A stretch of 64,000 nucleotides of DNA. Source: Actinomycetales bacterium (GTDB taxonomy: Bacteria > Actinomycetota > Actinomycetes > Mycobacteriales > Micromonosporaceae). A program made the translations under genes and the position numbers. The notes under the pieces are model-generated. The model made no database searches. It was not told where the DNA came from and saw only the letters and a program-made list of their open reading frames with translations. Location of the stretch: the NCBI GenBank assembly GCA_002919305.1, contig PKFB01000023.1:92430-156429 (forward strand), written 5' to 3'. Of the stretch, positions 11,444 through 23,208 are shown one piece after another (positions within the stretch are counted from its first letter, which is position 1; the number at the start of each line of letters is the position of its first letter).

Positions 11444-11719
11444 GGGGTGGCGCAAGTGTGGCACTAATTTGACGTTTTGCCCAGCTCGCGCGTGTCGCAC
11501 GCTGCCGTCTGGCAAGCCGCTGCGGTATCGGGTTCCCGCTGGCTTGCCCCATCCGGTGGCCCTAGTTGTCGACGTACCAATTGGGGCTCACCGTCCCCCC
11601 GTCCGGGGCGACATACCCTACGCTGTGCGCAAGCCTCATCGGGTGCCGGCGCACCCGCACAACACCACGGCGCGCAGGGCCACGGCTTGGAGCAGGTGGC
11701 GTTCGGAAGAGGACACAGT

Positions 11720-12109
11720 GTGGCGCTGAATATCGAGATCGATCAGTACAAAGGCTGCGTGGTGGCGCACCTGTCCGGCGAGCTGGATCTCACGGTGGCT
11801 ACCGAGACCCAGGACCGGTTCGCGGAGTTGATAGCCGCGCCTGGCGCTGCGGGCCCATTGCGGCTGGTGATCGATCTCACCCAGGTGTTCTTCTGCGACT
11901 CCACCGGCATCGGTGTGCTGGCCTGGATCCTGCGTGCGGTGCACAAGGCGCACGGGCAGTTGGCTCTGGTCGCTCCCCGGGGGATCTTGGTGACCAACCT
12001 CATCGAGGTCACCCAACTGTCCCGGGTCATTCCCACCCATCCCACGGTTGAGGCCGCCTGTCAGTATCTGACCGGCTCACCCCCTGCAGCGACCGGTACG
12101 ACGCCCTAA
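11720..12109 (+). CDS. STAS-domain anti-sigma factor antagonist
   Basis: SpoIIAA/RsbV-like antagonist of 129 residues. In known systems such proteins bind an anti-sigma kinase and so free a stress or sporulation sigma factor; phosphorylation of a conserved serine switches them off. That serine is in FFCDSTGIGVL. The GTG at 11720 has AAGAGGA six bases upstream and gives a family-typical length, whereas the frame open further upstream would add 81 low-complexity residues. No anti-sigma kinase or sigma gene is adjacent. A second STAS protein lies at 22578-22991. Confidence 0.85.
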   Translation: MALNIEIDQYKGCVVAHLSGELDLTVATETQDRFAELIAAPGAAGPLRLVIDLTQVFFCDSTGIGVLAWILRAVHKAHGQLALVAPRGILVTNLIEVTQLSRVIPTHPTVEAACQYLTGSPPAATGTTP

Positions 12110-12157: not shown

Positions 12158-12847
12158 ATGTCCATTGATCTGATGGCGCTGCTGCCACCACAGTGGCGGG
12201 AGCGCATGGAGCCCTTACTGGACCCGGACCACGTCGCCGCCCTCTCGGCCTTCCTGACCGAGGAGTACGCGGGTGAGACGCCTATCTATCCCCCCTTACC
12301 CGATCTATTCACGGCGTTTCGCCTCTGCTCCCCCGAGGACGCCAGGGTGCTCATCCTGGGCCAGGACCCCTATCACCGTGCCGGTCAGGCCCACGGCCTC
12401 AGCTTCAGCGTGCCGGAAGGCGTCACCCCACCACCGTCACTGCGTAACGTCTTCCGGGAGCTGCAGGATGACCTGGGGATCCCGCCCAGTAAGAGCGGTT
12501 CCCTCACCGGTTGGGCGGCTCAGGGGGTGTTGCTCCTCAACGCGGTGCTCACTGTGCGCGCCGGCGCCGCTGGTTCGCACGCCGGCCGCGGGTGGGAGGA
12601 ATTCACCGACGCCGCGATCCGGGTGCTCGACGCCAAGGACACCCGGGTGGTCTTTGTCCTGTGGGGCAGTTACGCCCGGCGGAAACGGACATTGGTCACC
12701 CGTCCCCACCACGTGATCCTGGAGGCGGGCCACCCCAGTCCGATGAATCCTCGAGGCTTCTTGGGGAGCCGACCATTCAGCAAGGTCAATAAGGCATTGG
12801 CCGATGCTGGCCTGCCCGAAATCGACTGGGCGCGCCGCTCCCTGTAA
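12158..12847 (+). CDS. ung: Uracil-DNA glycosylase (family 1)
   Basis: Removes uracil from DNA to start base-excision repair. The water-activating motif GQDPYH is at 68-73 with catalytic D70, and the minor-groove loop HPSPMNP starts at H192. The PPPSLRNVF proline-rich loop and LLLNAVLTV strand are also present. The 229-residue length is normal for bacterial Ung. ATG start 48 bases after the STAS stop, so the two may be co-transcribed. A long hairpin follows the gene. Confidence 0.96.
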   Translation: MSIDLMALLPPQWRERMEPLLDPDHVAALSAFLTEEYAGETPIYPPLPDLFTAFRLCSPEDARVLILGQDPYHRAGQAHGLSFSVPEGVTPPPSLRNVFRELQDDLGIPPSKSGSLTGWAAQGVLLLNAVLTVRAGAAGSHAGRGWEEFTDAAIRVLDAKDTRVVFVLWGSYARRKRTLVTRPHHVILEAGHPSPMNPRGFLGSRPFSKVNKALADAGLPEIDWARRSL

Positions 12848-13020: not shown

Positions 13021-16000
13021 TCATTCCGCGAAGCTCAAGGTGTCGTACCGCAGCCGCCCACCGGCATCCACGGTGATCCCCTCGATGCTTCCGTTCGAGA
13101 CGATGGTCGTCACTCCGGCCGCCACCGGTATCGCGGGCATCTGCTGATCCAGTACCTCCAGGGCGTCCCGGTACTGGGTCTGCGGGTCCGGCTGGGAGTC
13201 GGCCTCACGCATCAGGCGATCGAAGTCGGCGTCATTGAAGCCCCAGTAGTTGTACGCGCCGTCGCTCCTGAACAGCGGACCGATGTAGCCGTCCACCCGG
13301 GGGTAATCCGCCCGCCAGCGCAACAGCGCCATTCCAGGCAGCTCCTGCGCCACCGTGCGCTCGACGAGTTCCGCGGTCTCCACCTCGCGAAGCTCGACCT
13401 CGATCTCCAGAACCTCCACCAGCTGTTCGCGGATCTCACCGGCGAGCGGCTCTAACCGAGGGTCGTCGTACCACAGTTCCAGCGCGTCATCCCCGGACCA
13501 GCCACCCGCCTGATCCAGCAGCTGCGCGGCCCGGGCCGGCTCGGTCTGGCAGTAACCGCAGTTCCCCTCTCCCGGCGCGGCCGGGGTCCCGGAGGGGATG
13601 AAGTTGTTCAGTGCCTGCCACTCACCCGCGACCTGACCGGCGATCGCCTCCCGATCCAACGCCAGCGACAACGCCCGCCTCACCTCGGGGTCGGAGAACT
13701 CGGGCCGGTACAACGGCAGCGCCAGCATCAGGATCTGACCGTCAAACGCGTTGGTCAGGTGTTCTCCGTATTCCTGTGAGGCGTTGTCCAGCGAGCTGGA
13801 GGGCACCCCATCCACCAGCGTCAGATCCCCGGCGACGAACGACATGTAAGCGGTCTCGGGGTCCGGCATGATCCGCAGAGTCAGCACATCGATCTGCGGC
13901 TGCTCACCGGGGTAGTCCTCGTTACGCTCCAGCACGATCTGGTTGCCTTCCTCCAAGGCGGAGGCCACCCGGAACGGCCCATTGCCGATCGGGTGACGGT
14001 GGCAGGTCTCCAGATCCTCCAGACACCCGGCGGTCACCGGCAGGAAGGCCGCTTCGGCCAGCAGACGCCGGAATCCCACAAACGGGGTCGTGAGCGTCAC
14101 CTGCAGCGTCCGGGCATCGACAACCTCCACGCCGGACAGTTGGTTGGCGCTGGGGTTGTCGCCCTGCATCTGGTCGTACCCCTCTATCCGCGCGAAGAAG
14201 TGATTGTTCGCCTGCTGGTTGGGGCCGTAGGCGGCGTAGTTCCAGGCTCGGGCGAACGCTTCGGCGTCGACGGGGTCACCGTTATGGAAGGTCCATCCTT
14301 CTCGGATGCGGATGGTCCAGACCCGGTTGTCAGCGCTGTCGACCGCCTCGGCCACCGTGTTGGTGGGGGAGCCGTCCTCCGGGTTCAACGTCACCAAGCC
14401 GGTGTACAGGCTGTGCACAATCGCCAGCTCCGATCTGGTGCTGGCTTGGGAAGGCAGCAGACTGTGCGGCTCGGCGATGTTGGTGATCACCGCCCTTTCT
14501 TCCCCTGGGCCCGGTGACGTGGTGGTGGAGTTATCGTCGTCACTCGGCCGTGTCAAGAAGTACACGACACCGGTACCGACCAGCAGGATCAGCACGATCA
14601 CCCCGGCCAGCACCCCGATGAGGGCGCTTCGATTCCGACGCGGCGGCGGCCCTGAGCTCAGCGGGGGGTACGGCCCGAAGGTCGGACCGGGCGGCGGGCC
14701 AGGCGGCGGGCTGGTCGGCCCCGAAGACGGGGGGTACGCCGGAGGCGCCCCGGATGTGGGGGCCGACGGCGGAACTCCCGGTGTCGTACCGGAACCGTGG
14801 GCCATGGCTCCGACGGGCGGCTGCGTGCCCGGGGGCATCGGTGGTGTCGCGCCTGGCCCAGGCACAGGAGCAGGCACGGACGGACCGCCCTGTGGAGGCG
14901 CGGGCGGACCAGCCACCGGGACCGGCGGGGAGACCGGGGCGGTCGGCGGGGCGGACGGGCTGTTCGCCACCAGGACCGCTGGTGTGGCAGGGGTGGAGAA
15001 CTCGGCGGCGATGTTGGGCAGTGTCGGCGGTTCCTGGGTGTCCGACGGCGGCAGTGGGGTCGCGGCGCCCACAGCGACAGCGAGTTCCGGTTGATCGGCC
15101 GGTACCGGCACGGTCGCCAAGGCTTGGTGCAGCATCGCACCAACCAACGGCAATCGGCTGGATCCACCGACCAGGAACACCCCGGCCAACTGCTGCGGGG
15201 TGATCCGGGACCGGTACAGCGCCTGCACCATCGCCTCAACCGTGCGCTGCACTATCGGTCCGGCGAGCCGGTCCAGATCCTCCCGGGTGAGCAGGGCATC
15301 GGTGCCGAACAGGGGCAGGTGGATCGACGCGGTCGGGGTGGTCAGTAGCGACTCCTTGGCCGCACGCACGCTGTTCCACAGCGCCAACCGGTGCTGCCAG
15401 TCCTCGGGGGTGCTCGGTGACGTCAGACGCTTCCAGTCGGCGGGCCGGACCGCACCGTGGACAGTACCCAGATGGGTGACGATCGCATTGTCGATGTCCA
15501 GGCCACCCACCCCGTCCACGCTCTCGGTGGCGAGGATCTCGAACTGTTGAGGATCCCGGCGTACCACACTGGCCTCGAACCGACCAGCGCCGAAGTCATA
15601 CACCGCCAGCGCGCTTCCCACCGGTATGGAGCGCCCCAGCACCATCGTGTAGTAGGTGGCGGCGGCCACGGGGGTCGGGGTTAAAGACACCTGCCCCAAT
15701 CCAGCAGCGGCCGCTGCGTCGGCCAGTCGAAGCCGACGCGGCGGAGACCACGCAGCGGGGCAGACCACGGTCGTGACCCGATCCCGTCCCGGGGTGCCAC
15801 TACCGGCTCGGTCCGCCTCCAAGCCCACCCGTTGCAACACCACCTTCAGGGCGGCCTCGATCCCCACCGGGTGCCCACCCAGTGTCAAGGTCTCCGTATC
15901 GATGTGCCGCAGTGGGTGCAATTCCAGACGGGAAGGGTCACTAGCCGCCTGTGAGAAGGCCTCCCATCCCGCCAGCAGCCGATTGGGCCCCTCGGCGTAC

Positions 16001-16131
16001 ACCGCCGACGGTAGGAGGGGGGTCCCATCGAACAGCAATGGTTGGATCTGGCCATCGGGACGACGGGATACCGCAACCGTGTAAGCGGTCCCCACGTCTA
16101 TTCCGAGTCGGAACTCTCCACTCTGAGCCAC
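13021..16131 (-). CDS. Hsp70-type ATPase fused through a membrane helix to an oligopeptide-binding (SBP_bac_5) domain
   Basis: A 1036-residue chimera. Residues 6-358 are an Hsp70/actin-fold ATPase: phosphate-1 loop LGIDVGTAYTVAV, phosphate-2 loop YDFGAGRF (178-185, DLGGGT in DnaK) and adenosine motif GVFLVGGSSRLP (317-328). The DnaK peptide-binding domain is absent. About 140 residues of Pro/Gly/Ala linker (359-498) lead to one membrane helix (503-526), then a family-5 solute-binding domain (547-1036) with TIRIREGWTFHNGDPVDAEAF, HPIGNGPF and RRALSLALDREAI, as in DppA/OppA. With the ATPase inside, the binding domain is outside. No permease or ATPase genes adjoin. A membrane peptide sensor is the simplest inference; an alternative is a permease-independent binding receptor. 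The frame is continuous and no internal start is needed. Confidence 0.88.
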   Translation of the reverse strand: MAQSGEFRLGIDVGTAYTVAVSRRPDGQIQPLLFDGTPLLPSAVYAEGPNRLLAGWEAFSQAASDPSRLELHPLRHIDTETLTLGGHPVGIEAALKVVLQRVGLEADRAGSGTPGRDRVTTVVCPAAWSPPRRLRLADAAAAAGLGQVSLTPTPVAAATYYTMVLGRSIPVGSALAVYDFGAGRFEASVVRRDPQQFEILATESVDGVGGLDIDNAIVTHLGTVHGAVRPADWKRLTSPSTPEDWQHRLALWNSVRAAKESLLTTPTASIHLPLFGTDALLTREDLDRLAGPIVQRTVEAMVQALYRSRITPQQLAGVFLVGGSSRLPLVGAMLHQALATVPVPADQPELAVAVGAATPLPPSDTQEPPTLPNIAAEFSTPATPAVLVANSPSAPPTAPVSPPVPVAGPPAPPQGGPSVPAPVPGPGATPPMPPGTQPPVGAMAHGSGTTPGVPPSAPTSGAPPAYPPSSGPTSPPPGPPPGPTFGPYPPLSSGPPPRRNRSALIGVLAGVIVLILLVGTGVVYFLTRPSDDDNSTTTSPGPGEERAVITNIAEPHSLLPSQASTRSELAIVHSLYTGLVTLNPEDGSPTNTVAEAVDSADNRVWTIRIREGWTFHNGDPVDAEAFARAWNYAAYGPNQQANNHFFARIEGYDQMQGDNPSANQLSGVEVVDARTLQVTLTTPFVGFRRLLAEAAFLPVTAGCLEDLETCHRHPIGNGPFRVASALEEGNQIVLERNEDYPGEQPQIDVLTLRIMPDPETAYMSFVAGDLTLVDGVPSSSLDNASQEYGEHLTNAFDGQILMLALPLYRPEFSDPEVRRALSLALDREAIAGQVAGEWQALNNFIPSGTPAAPGEGNCGYCQTEPARAAQLLDQAGGWSGDDALELWYDDPRLEPLAGEIREQLVEVLEIEVELREVETAELVERTVAQELPGMALLRWRADYPRVDGYIGPLFRSDGAYNYWGFNDADFDRLMREADSQPDPQTQYRDALEVLDQQMPAIPVAAGVTTIVSNGSIEGITVDAGGRLRYDTLSFAE

Positions 16132-16392
16132 TCGGCGAGTTTAGAGAGTGGACGCAACCCCAGGTGACACCAGGAGGCCCGGATTTTTCGCGAAGAAAGA
16201 AGCAAAAGGAAAGAATGCGGCTTTTGATCGACGATGATGTGACGTGCAGTGTCGAGCCGTGTGCTCGTTTCAAACGAACGAGTGGCGTTCCAACCGGCTT
16301 ACCGACTGCCAGTTAGGGTGTCTGTCTAAGACATACCGTCCTCATGGACGCCGTGGAAATCTTTTCAACACCACCCAGGCAAGCGAGACTCC
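16132..16392. promoter_or_regulatory. Divergent promoter region
   Basis: This 261-bp gap separates the divergent Hsp70-fusion gene and the polysaccharide operon and must hold both promoters. A short dyad TCGTTT-C-AAACGA lies at 16265-16277. Nothing else distinct was seen. Confidence 0.4.
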
Positions 16393-18279
16393 GTGACTGA
16401 GAGCAACCAGACGGTGATCCTGCCTCATCAGCATGGCCACCAGCCCGCCGGTACCGGCTCCTCCGGCGTCGCTTCCTCCCCCGGTGCCGGCTCCGACGAG
16501 GAGACTACTCAGATCATCATGCCCTCGGAGGCTTTCGACGCTGATCCGCCGAACCAGGAGCGTCCCGAAGAGAACACCTCTCCTCCTCACGGTGCGGACG
16601 CATCCCCCGACGATGCAGATAGCCCATCCGGGAGGGTGAAGCCCGACTCCGCGGAAGAGGACACCTCATCCGATGACGCGAGCGCCTCCACCGGCGACGA
16701 TTCCGCTTCCCCAGCCCCGTCCCCCACCAAGCCCACCTCGACAGCACGCCCCCGCGTCACGACGCAGACCCGGTCAGGCCGGCTGGACCCCGCGATGATC
16801 GAGCCCGATGAACGGCTGACCGCTGTTTTAGGGATCGCGCCGGTCGGTGACGCCGGGGGTCGCGATCGTGCCTTAGCGCAGGTGGCCGTGCTCGTCCCCG
16901 CCATTGTGATGGCTGCTTTGGGGCTGATCCGTGCTCACTGGCCAGCCCTGTGGGCCGACGAGCTGGCGACCTGGGGCGCCGCCACCGCTCCCTGGGAGAA
17001 CCTGTGGGGGATGTTGTCGGAGATCGACGCCATCATGGCGCCCTACTACGTTCTGATGTGGGGCTGGGTCAAAGTATTTGGCGCCTCCGACTTCTCCCTA
17101 CGGGTGCCGTCGATTCTGGCGATGACGGCGGCTACCGGCCTGGTGGCCGCTTTAGGGACCCGACTGGCCTCACCACGGGTCGGGCTGATCGCCGGTCTGT
17201 TGTTCGCCCTGTTCCCCGCCACCTCCCGGTACGCCCAGGAAGCGCGGATGTACGCGTTCGTGGTGTTCGCCGGGGTGCTGGCCACCTTGTTGCTGGTTCG
17301 AGCCTTGGATGACCGCCCCCGCCTGGGACGGTGGGCAGCGTACACCGGTGGCGTCGCCCTTCTGGGGTTATTCCACGCCGTGGCCCTCCTTTTGTTGGCC
17401 GCGCACGCCCTCACCGTGTTGCTGCTGCGTCGCAGCTCCACCCTTCCATGGCTGATCAGCGCCATCGCAGGGTGCCTGCCGGCCCTCCCGCTGCTGTACA
17501 TCGGCTACTTCCGGCAACGCTCCCAGGTCAGTTGGATTCCCGAGACCAGCGCCGACCGGCTGGTCGACTACCCCGAGCAACTGTTCGGCTTGGCGCTCAT
17601 CGGCGCGGTCGTGATCGCTCTGTCGCTGTTGAGCATCTCCCTGCGGTATCCGGCGGTCGTCTACACCACCTGGGCCTTGATCCCGGCGGGAACGTTGTAT
17701 GTGGTCTCCGCCTTCATGCCCCTGTGGCTGCCCCGGTACCTGTTGTTCACCCTGCCGGCGTGGGCGTTGCTGGCCGCGACCGCGTTAGGTCGGGCCCCTG
17801 TCATGCGGGGCCTGGTAGCGGTGATGGCCATGGTGCTCTTCGCGGTCCCCACCCATCTGACCCTGCGTGAGCCAGACGGTCACACTCAGGCCACTCGGGA
17901 CCTCGCGGCGATCCTGACCGTCAGCTACCAGGAAGGCGACGTGATCGTGTACGGCCCCAATGACCGTGGGGAAGGGCGTGTGGGGCGGGACCTGGTCGCC
18001 CATTACGTGCCGGACGACCGTACCCCGGCCGATGTTCTGACCACCCGACCGCTGCGTACCGACGGCTTCTACCACGCCGAGGAGTGTGAGGATGTGGCCT
18101 CCTGTCTGGGGGAACCTGCCCGGGTCTGGGTGCTGCGCGTCGGTGACCGCAACGACCCCCTGTTCCAACTGGGTGAGGCCAAAGAGGATGTGCTACGGGA
18201 GTACTACGAGGTCGAACAAATCTGGCATCCCACCGGTCTGACCCTGGCCCTGCTGGTGCGGGAGTCCACCGTGTCGTGA
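16393..18279 (+). CDS. Membrane glycosyltransferase of the PMT/ArnT (GT39/GT83-like) type
   Basis: A 628-residue protein with about 155 disordered, acidic, Ser/Pro-rich cytoplasmic residues, then ten or more membrane helices (from about 162) and a C-terminal extracytoplasmic domain (about 490-628). The first outside loop carries WADELATW with the D189-E190 pair typical of lipid-phosphosugar-dependent PMT-type enzymes, and RYAQEARMYAF is the conserved second-loop motif of the PMT_2 group. It should use a polyprenyl-phosphate sugar outside the membrane. GTG start with only a weak ribosome binding site. It is first in a run with a processive GT2 and a GH26, suggesting it modifies or primes the same polymer. 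The long acidic leader is unusual. Confidence 0.8.
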   Translation: MTESNQTVILPHQHGHQPAGTGSSGVASSPGAGSDEETTQIIMPSEAFDADPPNQERPEENTSPPHGADASPDDADSPSGRVKPDSAEEDTSSDDASASTGDDSASPAPSPTKPTSTARPRVTTQTRSGRLDPAMIEPDERLTAVLGIAPVGDAGGRDRALAQVAVLVPAIVMAALGLIRAHWPALWADELATWGAATAPWENLWGMLSEIDAIMAPYYVLMWGWVKVFGASDFSLRVPSILAMTAATGLVAALGTRLASPRVGLIAGLLFALFPATSRYAQEARMYAFVVFAGVLATLLLVRALDDRPRLGRWAAYTGGVALLGLFHAVALLLLAAHALTVLLLRRSSTLPWLISAIAGCLPALPLLYIGYFRQRSQVSWIPETSADRLVDYPEQLFGLALIGAVVIALSLLSISLRYPAVVYTTWALIPAGTLYVVSAFMPLWLPRYLLFTLPAWALLAATALGRAPVMRGLVAVMAMVLFAVPTHLTLREPDGHTQATRDLAAILTVSYQEGDVIVYGPNDRGEGRVGRDLVAHYVPDDRTPADVLTTRPLRTDGFYHAEECEDVASCLGEPARVWVLRVGDRNDPLFQLGEAKEDVLREYYEVEQIWHPTGLTLALLVRESTVS

Positions 18280-22577: not shown

Positions 22578-22991
22578 TCAGGGGGTGGGGACCGGACGAC
22601 GCAGCCCGGTCAGGCGGCTCCGCTGGGGTGGCACCGGCCATGCATCCGCATCGGAGTCCTCCGATGACGTCACACCCAGCAACTCGGCAACACCGATGAC
22701 CCGGAACAGCCGAGACACGAAGCGGTTGGGGTTGCGAACCACCAAACGGACGCCCACGTCTCGCGCGATGCGATACGCCACCACCAAGGTCCCGATGCCG
22801 GTGGAGTCCAGCACGGTGATCCCGGCGACGTCGATCGTGATCAACGAGGGTTGCTCGTTGATCAGCACGTCGGTGATGACTTGTCGCAGATCAGGAGCGG
22901 TCGCGCAGTCCATCTCTCCTTTGAGAGTGATCAGGACGTTGCGGCCCCCATCGTCTTCATCCTGGACGTGCGTGGTGATCGACAGCGCCAT
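22578..22991 (-). CDS. STAS-domain anti-sigma factor antagonist
   Basis: Second SpoIIAA/RsbV-like protein in the window, 137 residues, with the phosphorylatable serine in VLDSTGIGTLV. The ATG at 22991 follows GGGGGAG by six bases, and reading further upstream would add 48 residues without family support. The C-terminal 25 residues (SSEDSDADAWPVPPQRSRL...) are an extra tail. No kinase or sigma factor gene is adjacent. It probably joins a partner-switching network whose other members are elsewhere. Confidence 0.85.
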   Translation of the reverse strand: MALSITTHVQDEDDGGRNVLITLKGEMDCATAPDLRQVITDVLINEQPSLITIDVAGITVLDSTGIGTLVVAYRIARDVGVRLVVRNPNRFVSRLFRVIGVAELLGVTSSEDSDADAWPVPPQRSRLTGLRRPVPTP

Positions 22992-23208
22992 TGCGTTCTC
23001 CCCCACGACACTCAAACCTCGCCACGCGGTTCGCGGCCGGTATTGCCCCACAGCCCGGTTAGGCGCATGCCAGCCTAGCGGGTTTCGACCGACCGTGCCG
23101 ACTCTCTGTCCCACAGTGACGCCCAACACGGTCAACGGTCAACCCCTTATAGGTCCTGAAATAGGGATCGTGAGTGGACGCCACAGCCACATCGTGGAGT
23201 GATCTACT

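What the first reader, a model, noticed from the sequence alone, without database searches (positions are those of the whole stretch)
13021..16131. Hsp70 ATPase domain joined through a membrane helix to an extracellular oligopeptide-binding domain
One continuous 1036-codon frame carries an Hsp70/actin-type ATPase without the DnaK peptide-binding domain, a 140-residue proline-rich linker, one membrane helix and a complete DppA/OppA-type binding domain. Hsp70 substrate recognition appears to have been replaced by an extracytoplasmic peptide receptor. No ABC permease is adjacent. This could be a transmembrane sensor or a nucleotide-driven receptor of a kind not described, as far as I know. The phosphate-2 loop reads DFGAGRF instead of DLGGGT, so ATP hydrolysis may be altered.
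Basis: partly seen in the sequence, partly recalled or inferred. Interest (0 to 1): 0.82.

Follow-up and report, generated by a model that had tools for sequence, protein, structure and literature searches.

The report
Peptide receptor with dead Hsp70 engine
A bacterial gene encodes one protein that joins an Hsp70-type ATPase domain, stripped of its key catalytic residues, through a predicted membrane helix to a peptide-binding-type domain, so it likely senses peptides outside the cell and would signal by changing shape or partners rather than by burning ATP.

Summary
In detail: one intact 1036-codon frame (minus strand) carries an Hsp70-type nucleotide-binding domain (NBD), a 144-residue linker with 52 prolines, one predicted membrane helix and a complete DppA/OppA-type domain (SBP_bac_5, E 9e-62); no PF00528 permease lies in the window. 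It belongs to a large, apparently actinomycete family: NBD, Pro-rich linker, often one helix (47 of 90 surveyed), and interchangeable outer domains (PQQ, WD40, PBP1, sugar-binding, SBP_bac_5). Its SBP domain was acquired separately from those of the other Hsp70-SBP_bac_5 fusions found (AU p 0.011). The outer domain keeps the peptide-pocket W and D. Best reading: a one-pass peptide receptor with a pseudo-ATPase Hsp70 fold as relay. Ligand, partner and output are inferred. Seven paper searches aimed at the family found no description of it.

The parts
13021..16131 (-). whole gene, 1036 aa, GTG start, no same-strand neighbour close by; divergent from 16393-18279 (+) and convergent with UDG 12158-12847 (+)
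15064..16131 (-). residues 1-356: Hsp70-type nucleotide-binding domain, predicted cytoplasmic
15910..15912 (-). L74 in place of the catalytic Lys (DnaK K70)
   Evidence: role of K70: PMC12406271 passages
15673..15675 (-). T153 in place of Glu (DnaK E171)
15574..15597 (-). phosphate-2 loop DFGAGRFE (179-186): R184 for T199, E186 for D201; D194 equivalent kept
15343..15345 (-). L263 in place of the adenine-contact Ser (DnaK S274)
   Evidence: 198 of 199 homologs Ser, 1 Thr; role:
14632..15063 (-). residues 357-500: Pro-rich linker, predicted disordered; no Hsp70 interdomain-linker motif
14563..14619 (-). residues 505-523: single predicted transmembrane helix, preceded by RRNR (N-in expected)
13024..14493 (-). 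residues 547-1036: DppA/OppA-type peptide-binding domain, predicted outside; no lipobox Cys (no Cys between 124 and 703)
   Evidence: Pfam 9e-62; M. tuberculosis DppA 7jls E 1.5e-30
13306..13317 (-). W939-R-A-D942: matches W442/D445 of the M. tuberculosis DppA peptide pocket
   Evidence: alignment; PMC6751184 passages
16132..16392 (.). divergent intergenic region upstream of the gene

Best explanation
This gene encodes a single protein in which a DppA/OppA-type peptide-binding domain is joined by one predicted membrane helix and a Pro-rich linker to an Hsp70-type domain lacking five conserved residues at or near the ATP site, and it likely works as a one-pass peptide receptor whose Hsp70 half would relay the signal as a non-hydrolysing pseudo-ATPase. 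Proposed steps: (1) a peptide closes the two lobes of the outer domain [inferred; pocket W and D are kept]; (2) closure changes the packing or association of receptors through the single helix and flexible linker [untested]; (3) inside, the Hsp70 fold, frozen or nucleotide-bound but not cycling, gains or loses a cytoplasmic partner, possibly an intact family member [untested]. The general design, an interchangeable outer domain on an Hsp70-type inner module, parallels receptor kinases: domains of the same Pfam family (SBP_bac_5) sit on Ser/Thr kinases, SARP-type regulators, cyclases and chemotaxis-type proteins in other genomes [shown at sequence level].
For: Architecture. Folds. Loss of K70/E171/T199/D201: invariant in 119 of 119 first-search homologs; of 39 invariant NBD columns 5 are changed here, at most 2 in any other listed homolog in a leave-one-out count. 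PMC12406271 (passages): K70 and T11 are the gamma-phosphate sensors and replacing them incapacitates allostery, T199A greatly reduces ATPase, E171 holds Mg-bound water, S274 contacts adenine. The receptor half keeps the peptide-pocket W/D. The outer domain has neither a lipobox Cys nor a permease gene in the window. Outer domains are interchangeable across the family: 10 changes among 7 labelled kinds on the NBD tree; PQQ in 10 and WD40 in 5 of 41 outer regions from the same-family survey. SBP_bac_5 fused to kinase (P0127, P0130), SARP-type regulator (P0143), cyclase (P0149), MCP-type (P0159) (P0127, P0143, P0149 rescanned). Precedent for a solute-binding protein proposed to feed a cytoplasmic regulator: GlnH-GlnX-PknG (PMC6069109, abstract).
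Against: No partner, downstream gene or expression evidence: the neighbours are glycosyltransferases, UDG, STAS and other genes of no clear link. Most of the family keeps an intact ATPase site, so a dead copy could be a decaying gene; its long end branches (NBD 1.44, 1.10; SBP 1.01) fit relaxed constraint too. No ortholog is at hand to test selection: its genus is represented by this genome alone in the held set. D8, T11, D194 and K270 equivalents are kept, so nucleotide binding or residual hydrolysis is not excluded. [quoted passage not shown] The other degenerate SBP_bac_5 fusion, P0183, has lost the pocket Asp, which may mean decay there.
Confidence: 0.55

Rival explanations
1. A membrane-tethered scavenger: the outer domain hands peptides to an ABC permease encoded elsewhere, probably the C13 opp system, and the Hsp70 part is only an inner anchor.
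For: The free SBP most like it in this genome is OppA of an opp-type operon (L046:1503-7376, genes named by eye, its two permeases confirmed by PF00528; 39% identity); they fall together in a 9-row set (100/99).
Against: That operon has its own SBP; a 144-residue linker plus an NBD is a costly anchor; other family members carry outer domains that are not transport proteins (PQQ, WD40).
Confidence: 0.15
2. A working nucleotide-driven receptor: the NBD still binds and slowly hydrolyses ATP with a rearranged site, and ligand binding gates the cycle.
For: Most relatives keep the site (197 of 199 listed; 80 of 80; 74 of 90); D8, T11, D194, K270 and the GGSSR motif equivalents are kept here.
Against: K70, E171, T199, D201 and S274 are all replaced; replacing K70 incapacitates allostery in DnaK (PMC12406271, passages).
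Confidence: 0.15
3. A decaying gene: a fusion that is losing function and keeps an open frame only by being young.
For: Long end branches; lost invariant residues; no ortholog seen.
Against: 1036 codons without a stop against 17.6 expected on position-shuffled letters; of the five changed invariant columns four are K70, E171 and two in the phosphate-2 loop rather than scattered; peptide-pocket residues kept; degenerate sites recur in the family.
Confidence: 0.1

Closest known systems
DnaK / Hsp70 nucleotide-binding domain
   Different: no substrate-binding domain match, no interdomain-linker motif (0 of 279 family rows; own DnaK has it), catalytic residues lost here
M. tuberculosis DppA (Rv3666c) and OppA-type solute-binding proteins
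   Same: complete domain, 26% identity, best fold hits; pocket W and D
   Different: fused behind a membrane helix and an Hsp70 domain; no lipobox Cys; no permease gene in the window
Receptor Ser/Thr kinases with SBP_bac_5 outer domain (P0127; P0130 from Spirillospora albida)
   Same: kinase domain, then a Pro-rich stretch and a hydrophobic helix (by eye), then SBP_bac_5
   Different: kinase in place of the Hsp70 domain; their SBP domains form their own clade
Other Hsp70-SBP_bac_5 fusions P0089, P0181, P0182, P0183
   Same: same order of parts
   Different: SBP domain from another branch (AU p 0.011 against one clade); P0089 and P0182 keep the ATPase residues
GlnH-GlnX-PknG nutrient sensing (PMC6069109, abstract seen)
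   Same: solute-binding protein used to signal across the membrane
   Different: three proteins and a kinase; this genome has such a locus separately (L047)
HSP70-containing GTPase conflict systems (PMC7159879, passages seen)
   Different: gene clusters around GAP1-N2 or other GTPases; no outer receptor domain on the HSP70 protein in the passages seen

Membership tests
Hsp70 chaperone (DnaK-type) | Hsp70 nucleotide-binding fold | tested here: met
Hsp70 chaperone (DnaK-type) | substrate-binding domain and interdomain linker | tested here: not met
   Pfam match ends at profile position 369 of 599; linker motif in 0 of 279 family rows, present in own DnaK
Hsp70 chaperone (DnaK-type) | catalytic K70, E171, T199 | tested here: not met
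   L, T, R here
Hsp70 chaperone (DnaK-type) | J-protein and GrpE dependence | not testable with these tools
   N170 and T173 equivalents are P and V here and mostly P/A and V in the family, which argues against a DnaK-type linker contact
ABC-type peptide solute-binding protein (SBP_bac_5) | complete fold and peptide-pocket W/D | tested here: met
ABC-type peptide solute-binding protein (SBP_bac_5) | secreted or lipid-anchored, encoded with permease | tested here: not met
   no Cys between 124 and 703; no PF00528 in the window
Hsp70-NBD one-pass receptor family (named here) | family NBD, Pro-rich linker, one helix, variable outer domain | tested here: met
   layout of others
Hsp70-NBD one-pass receptor family (named here) | intact ATPase residues (majority state) | tested here: not met
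   74 of 90 intact in the survey, this one not
anti-phage defence | match to a PADLOC model | tested here: not met
   0 families at E 0.001 for this protein

The most novel reading that the evidence does not exclude
Actinomycetes have a receptor class, parallel to receptor kinases, in which an Hsp70 fold is the inner signalling module under interchangeable outer sensors; some members, this peptide receptor among them, run as pseudo-ATPases, so the Hsp70 fold has been recruited repeatedly as a chaperone-free, ATP-free signalling switch.
Probability: 0.42. Interest if true: 0.82.

Novelty: new variant of a known kind. Interest (0 to 1): 0.62.

Why it matters
Hsp70 is read almost everywhere as a chaperone. 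Here a large family, which my searches did not find described, uses its ATPase fold without the substrate domain, under outer domains of kinds that also sit on receptor kinases, and some branches have dropped catalytic residues. If the receptor reading is right, it adds an output module to bacterial one-pass signalling and gives natural pseudo-ATPase Hsp70s in which the conformational role can be separated from hydrolysis. Intact and degenerate siblings make this directly testable.

Tried and rejected
Assembly join near 14,600: rejected on coding periodicity, stop count and family layout; no second assembly was available. Canonical chaperone: rejected (linker motif and substrate domain absent). 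Single origin of the Hsp70-SBP_bac_5 fusions: AU p 0.011 (the group was named before that tree was seen). 'The dead site is unique': my first reading of 119 of 119, 197 of 199 and 80 of 80 intact was biased to high scorers, and one of the two search patterns contained the Glu motif; the survey gave 74 of 90 intact. That survey is hand-picked: of 126 PF00012 match rows in the 12 other genomes I fetched 90 and left out 36 (DnaK-like matches over 190 bits and short pieces). Of the 16 departures, by eye, L136 and L193 look like another Hsp70-like group and L173 is a cut frame; 13 remain, 12 of them with T199 changed (two only to Ser) and L138 with K70 changed; in several the K column is a gap. Five rows (L136, L193, L173, L154, L156) were dropped before the tree, which is a quick tree (SH-aLRT only). 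Genome context as a clue to function: no shared neighbour with the window among the clusters shown; some short family members share a neighbourhood (see noticed), which did not explain this gene. PADLOC: nothing. Foldseek TM-scores are low because one query holds two domains; the model's pTM is 0.47, so the domains' relative placement means nothing; the second look tested residues 4-347 and barely the SBP half. Paper searches: searches were aimed at the family or at dead Hsp70s and showed no description of it; some searches were for precedents and residues. The library lacks most subscription journals. Names recalled, not from a call: LCCL for PF03815, MCP for PF00015.

Full report

The family. 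The first protein search found 1093 proteins at E up to 0.001; 120 were listed, 119 besides the window's own. With 80 further rows there are 199 homologs. By the Pfam column, read by hand, their further parts include PBP1-type 31, PQQ 7, WD40 6, PF24249 5, PF03815 5, SBP_bac_5 4 (P0089, P0181, P0182, P0183) and sugar-binding PF13407 2; most others carry no second domain besides the related MreB model. On an NBD tree of 96 rows (60 labelled, the window protein included and P0181 left out) the seven labels need 10 changes where 6 is the least possible and shuffles average 27.9: outer domains tend to stay with a lineage but are swapped now and then. In 13 genomes of its family, PF00012 match rows (DnaK and split pieces counted) run from 3 to 30 per genome. 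From the 12 other genomes I fetched 90 of 126 match rows, leaving out DnaK-like matches over 190 bits and short pieces. All 90 match a profile built from the family; 47 have exactly one helix after the NBD, 21 none, 22 more. Of the 47, 41 have at least 100 residues after the helix; 10 of these 41 match PQQ and 5 WD40. In the 47 one-helix rows the linker is 22% Pro at the median, and 38 of 47 have more R/K on the inner side of the helix.

The ATPase site. Aligned with own DnaK, the window protein has L for K70, T for E171, R for T199, E for D201 and L for S274, and keeps D8, T11, D194, G196, G198 and K270. K, E, T and D201 are invariant in 119 of 119 first-search homologs; of 39 invariant NBD columns 5 are changed here (the fifth is a Gly to Ser at 204), whereas no other listed homolog departs at more than 2 in a leave-one-out count. 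In the larger set 197 of 199 keep K/E/T; the exceptions are P0181 (N-truncated, not readable) and P0183, itself an SBP_bac_5 fusion with E to D, T to G and D201 to T. All 80 genome loci keep K/E/T. These sets favour close, intact relatives. The less biased survey gives 74 of 90 intact; three of the 16 departures are not clear cases, leaving 13. On a 99-row quick tree the degenerate state needs 5 changes, at least 3 forced by supported branches; this protein sits among intact rows (support 88), and L170, also one-helix and degenerate, sits elsewhere with intact L160 and L174 (98). So lost catalytic residues are a minority state whose distribution asks for several separate changes; the counts cannot by themselves tell loss from gain. 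PMC12406271 (passages) says for DnaK that T11 and K70 sense the gamma-phosphate and that replacing them incapacitates allostery, that T199A greatly reduces ATPase without harming allostery, that E171 holds Mg-bound water but is not absolutely essential for allostery, and that S274 contacts adenine.

The outer domain. It aligns over its length with M. tuberculosis DppA (E 1.1e-53). The paper on that protein names W442 and D445 as conserved residues of the peptide pocket (PMC6751184, passages); the matching GWRGDYP stretch is RWRADYP here, W939 and D942. There is no Cys between 124 and 703, so no lipobox anchor. In this genome 5 SBP_bac_5 proteins were found, only this one in the long frame. The free one most like it is OppA of an opp-type operon on C13 (39%). 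In 12 other genomes of the family, 17 matches to this domain (E up to 1e-40, in 9 genomes) all lie in frames of 538 to 644 codons, that is, free proteins. On a 32-row tree the domain nests with free proteins (9-row set 100/99), while the four other Hsp70-fused domains form one clade (100/100); one clade for all five is rejected at AU p 0.011. Relatives of the domain are also fused to Ser/Thr kinases (P0127, P0130), SARP-type regulators, cyclases and MCP-type proteins.

Mechanism. Shown: fusion, layout, lost catalytic residues, kept peptide-pocket residues, separate origin, family-wide exchange of outer domains. Predicted: one helix with the NBD inside and the SBP outside. Inferred: peptide binding closes the outer domain, changes receptor packing, and the Hsp70 fold presents or hides a surface to a cytoplasmic partner without an ATP cycle. 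The partner may be an intact family member, since own genome has two more family NBDs: L011:11520-14393, 957 aa with no helix over threshold after the NBD, and a fragment cut by the end of contig C40. The design resembles receptor kinases and the GlnH-GlnX-PknG route (PMC6069109, abstract only), for which this genome has a like locus (L047).

Against. No partner or output is known; no ortholog is at hand to measure selection; long branches fit relaxed constraint as well as new function. P0183, the other degenerate SBP_bac_5 fusion, has lost the pocket Asp. Nucleotide binding is not excluded.

Literature. Seven paper searches aimed at the family or at dead Hsp70s showed no description of it. 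The nearest are HSP70 genes without the peptide-binding domain in GTPase conflict systems (PMC7159879, passages) and WD40 proteins that often neighbour or contain kinases in Cyanobacteria and Planctomycetes (PMC5587647, passages).

Noticed in passing
L047:2435-8425 (G000 contig C11, 82.4-88.4 kb, just before the window): A PknG-like kinase (PknG_rubred and PknG_TPR domains) next to an SBP_bac_3 protein, and by eye a membrane protein and a PP2C-like protein: a GlnX-GlnH-PknG-type sensing locus, about 17 kb from the finding.
   Followed up: partly
L139, L180, L181, L195: A subgroup of family NBDs with degenerate ATPase residues followed by five or six hydrophobic helices instead of one; grouped with support 99 on the quick tree.
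   Followed up: partly
L092, L124, L067 and own contig C40 (L012): Short family members in L092 and L124 share a neighbourhood with genes that look by eye like a glycerophosphodiester phosphodiesterase and an MFS transporter (L067 has the transporter); all three also have a related GTPase gene nearby (Pfam Dynamin_N in the L092 copy). By eye the own C40 fragment has the first two neighbours.
   Followed up: partly
L013:5363-7336 (contig C34): A divergent Hsp70-like protein of 657 aa whose first motif reads GIGLGS (first catalytic Asp replaced by Gly), divergent from a Ser/Thr kinase gene.
   Followed up: no
L011:11520-14393 (contig C16): A family NBD with intact residues, a very long Pro-rich stretch and no helix over threshold after the NBD; its C-terminal region has no Pfam match. 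It lies about 5 kb from an opp-type operon.
   Followed up: partly
P0143, P0149, P0165, P0176, P0177: SBP_bac_5 domains in SARP- and cyclase-type regulators that also carry AAA domains (P0177: none listed): solute-binding domains joined to regulator modules.
   Followed up: no
window 11477-12109 (+) and 22578-23135 (-): Two STAS-domain genes (anti-sigma antagonist-like) lie on either side of the finding.
   Followed up: no
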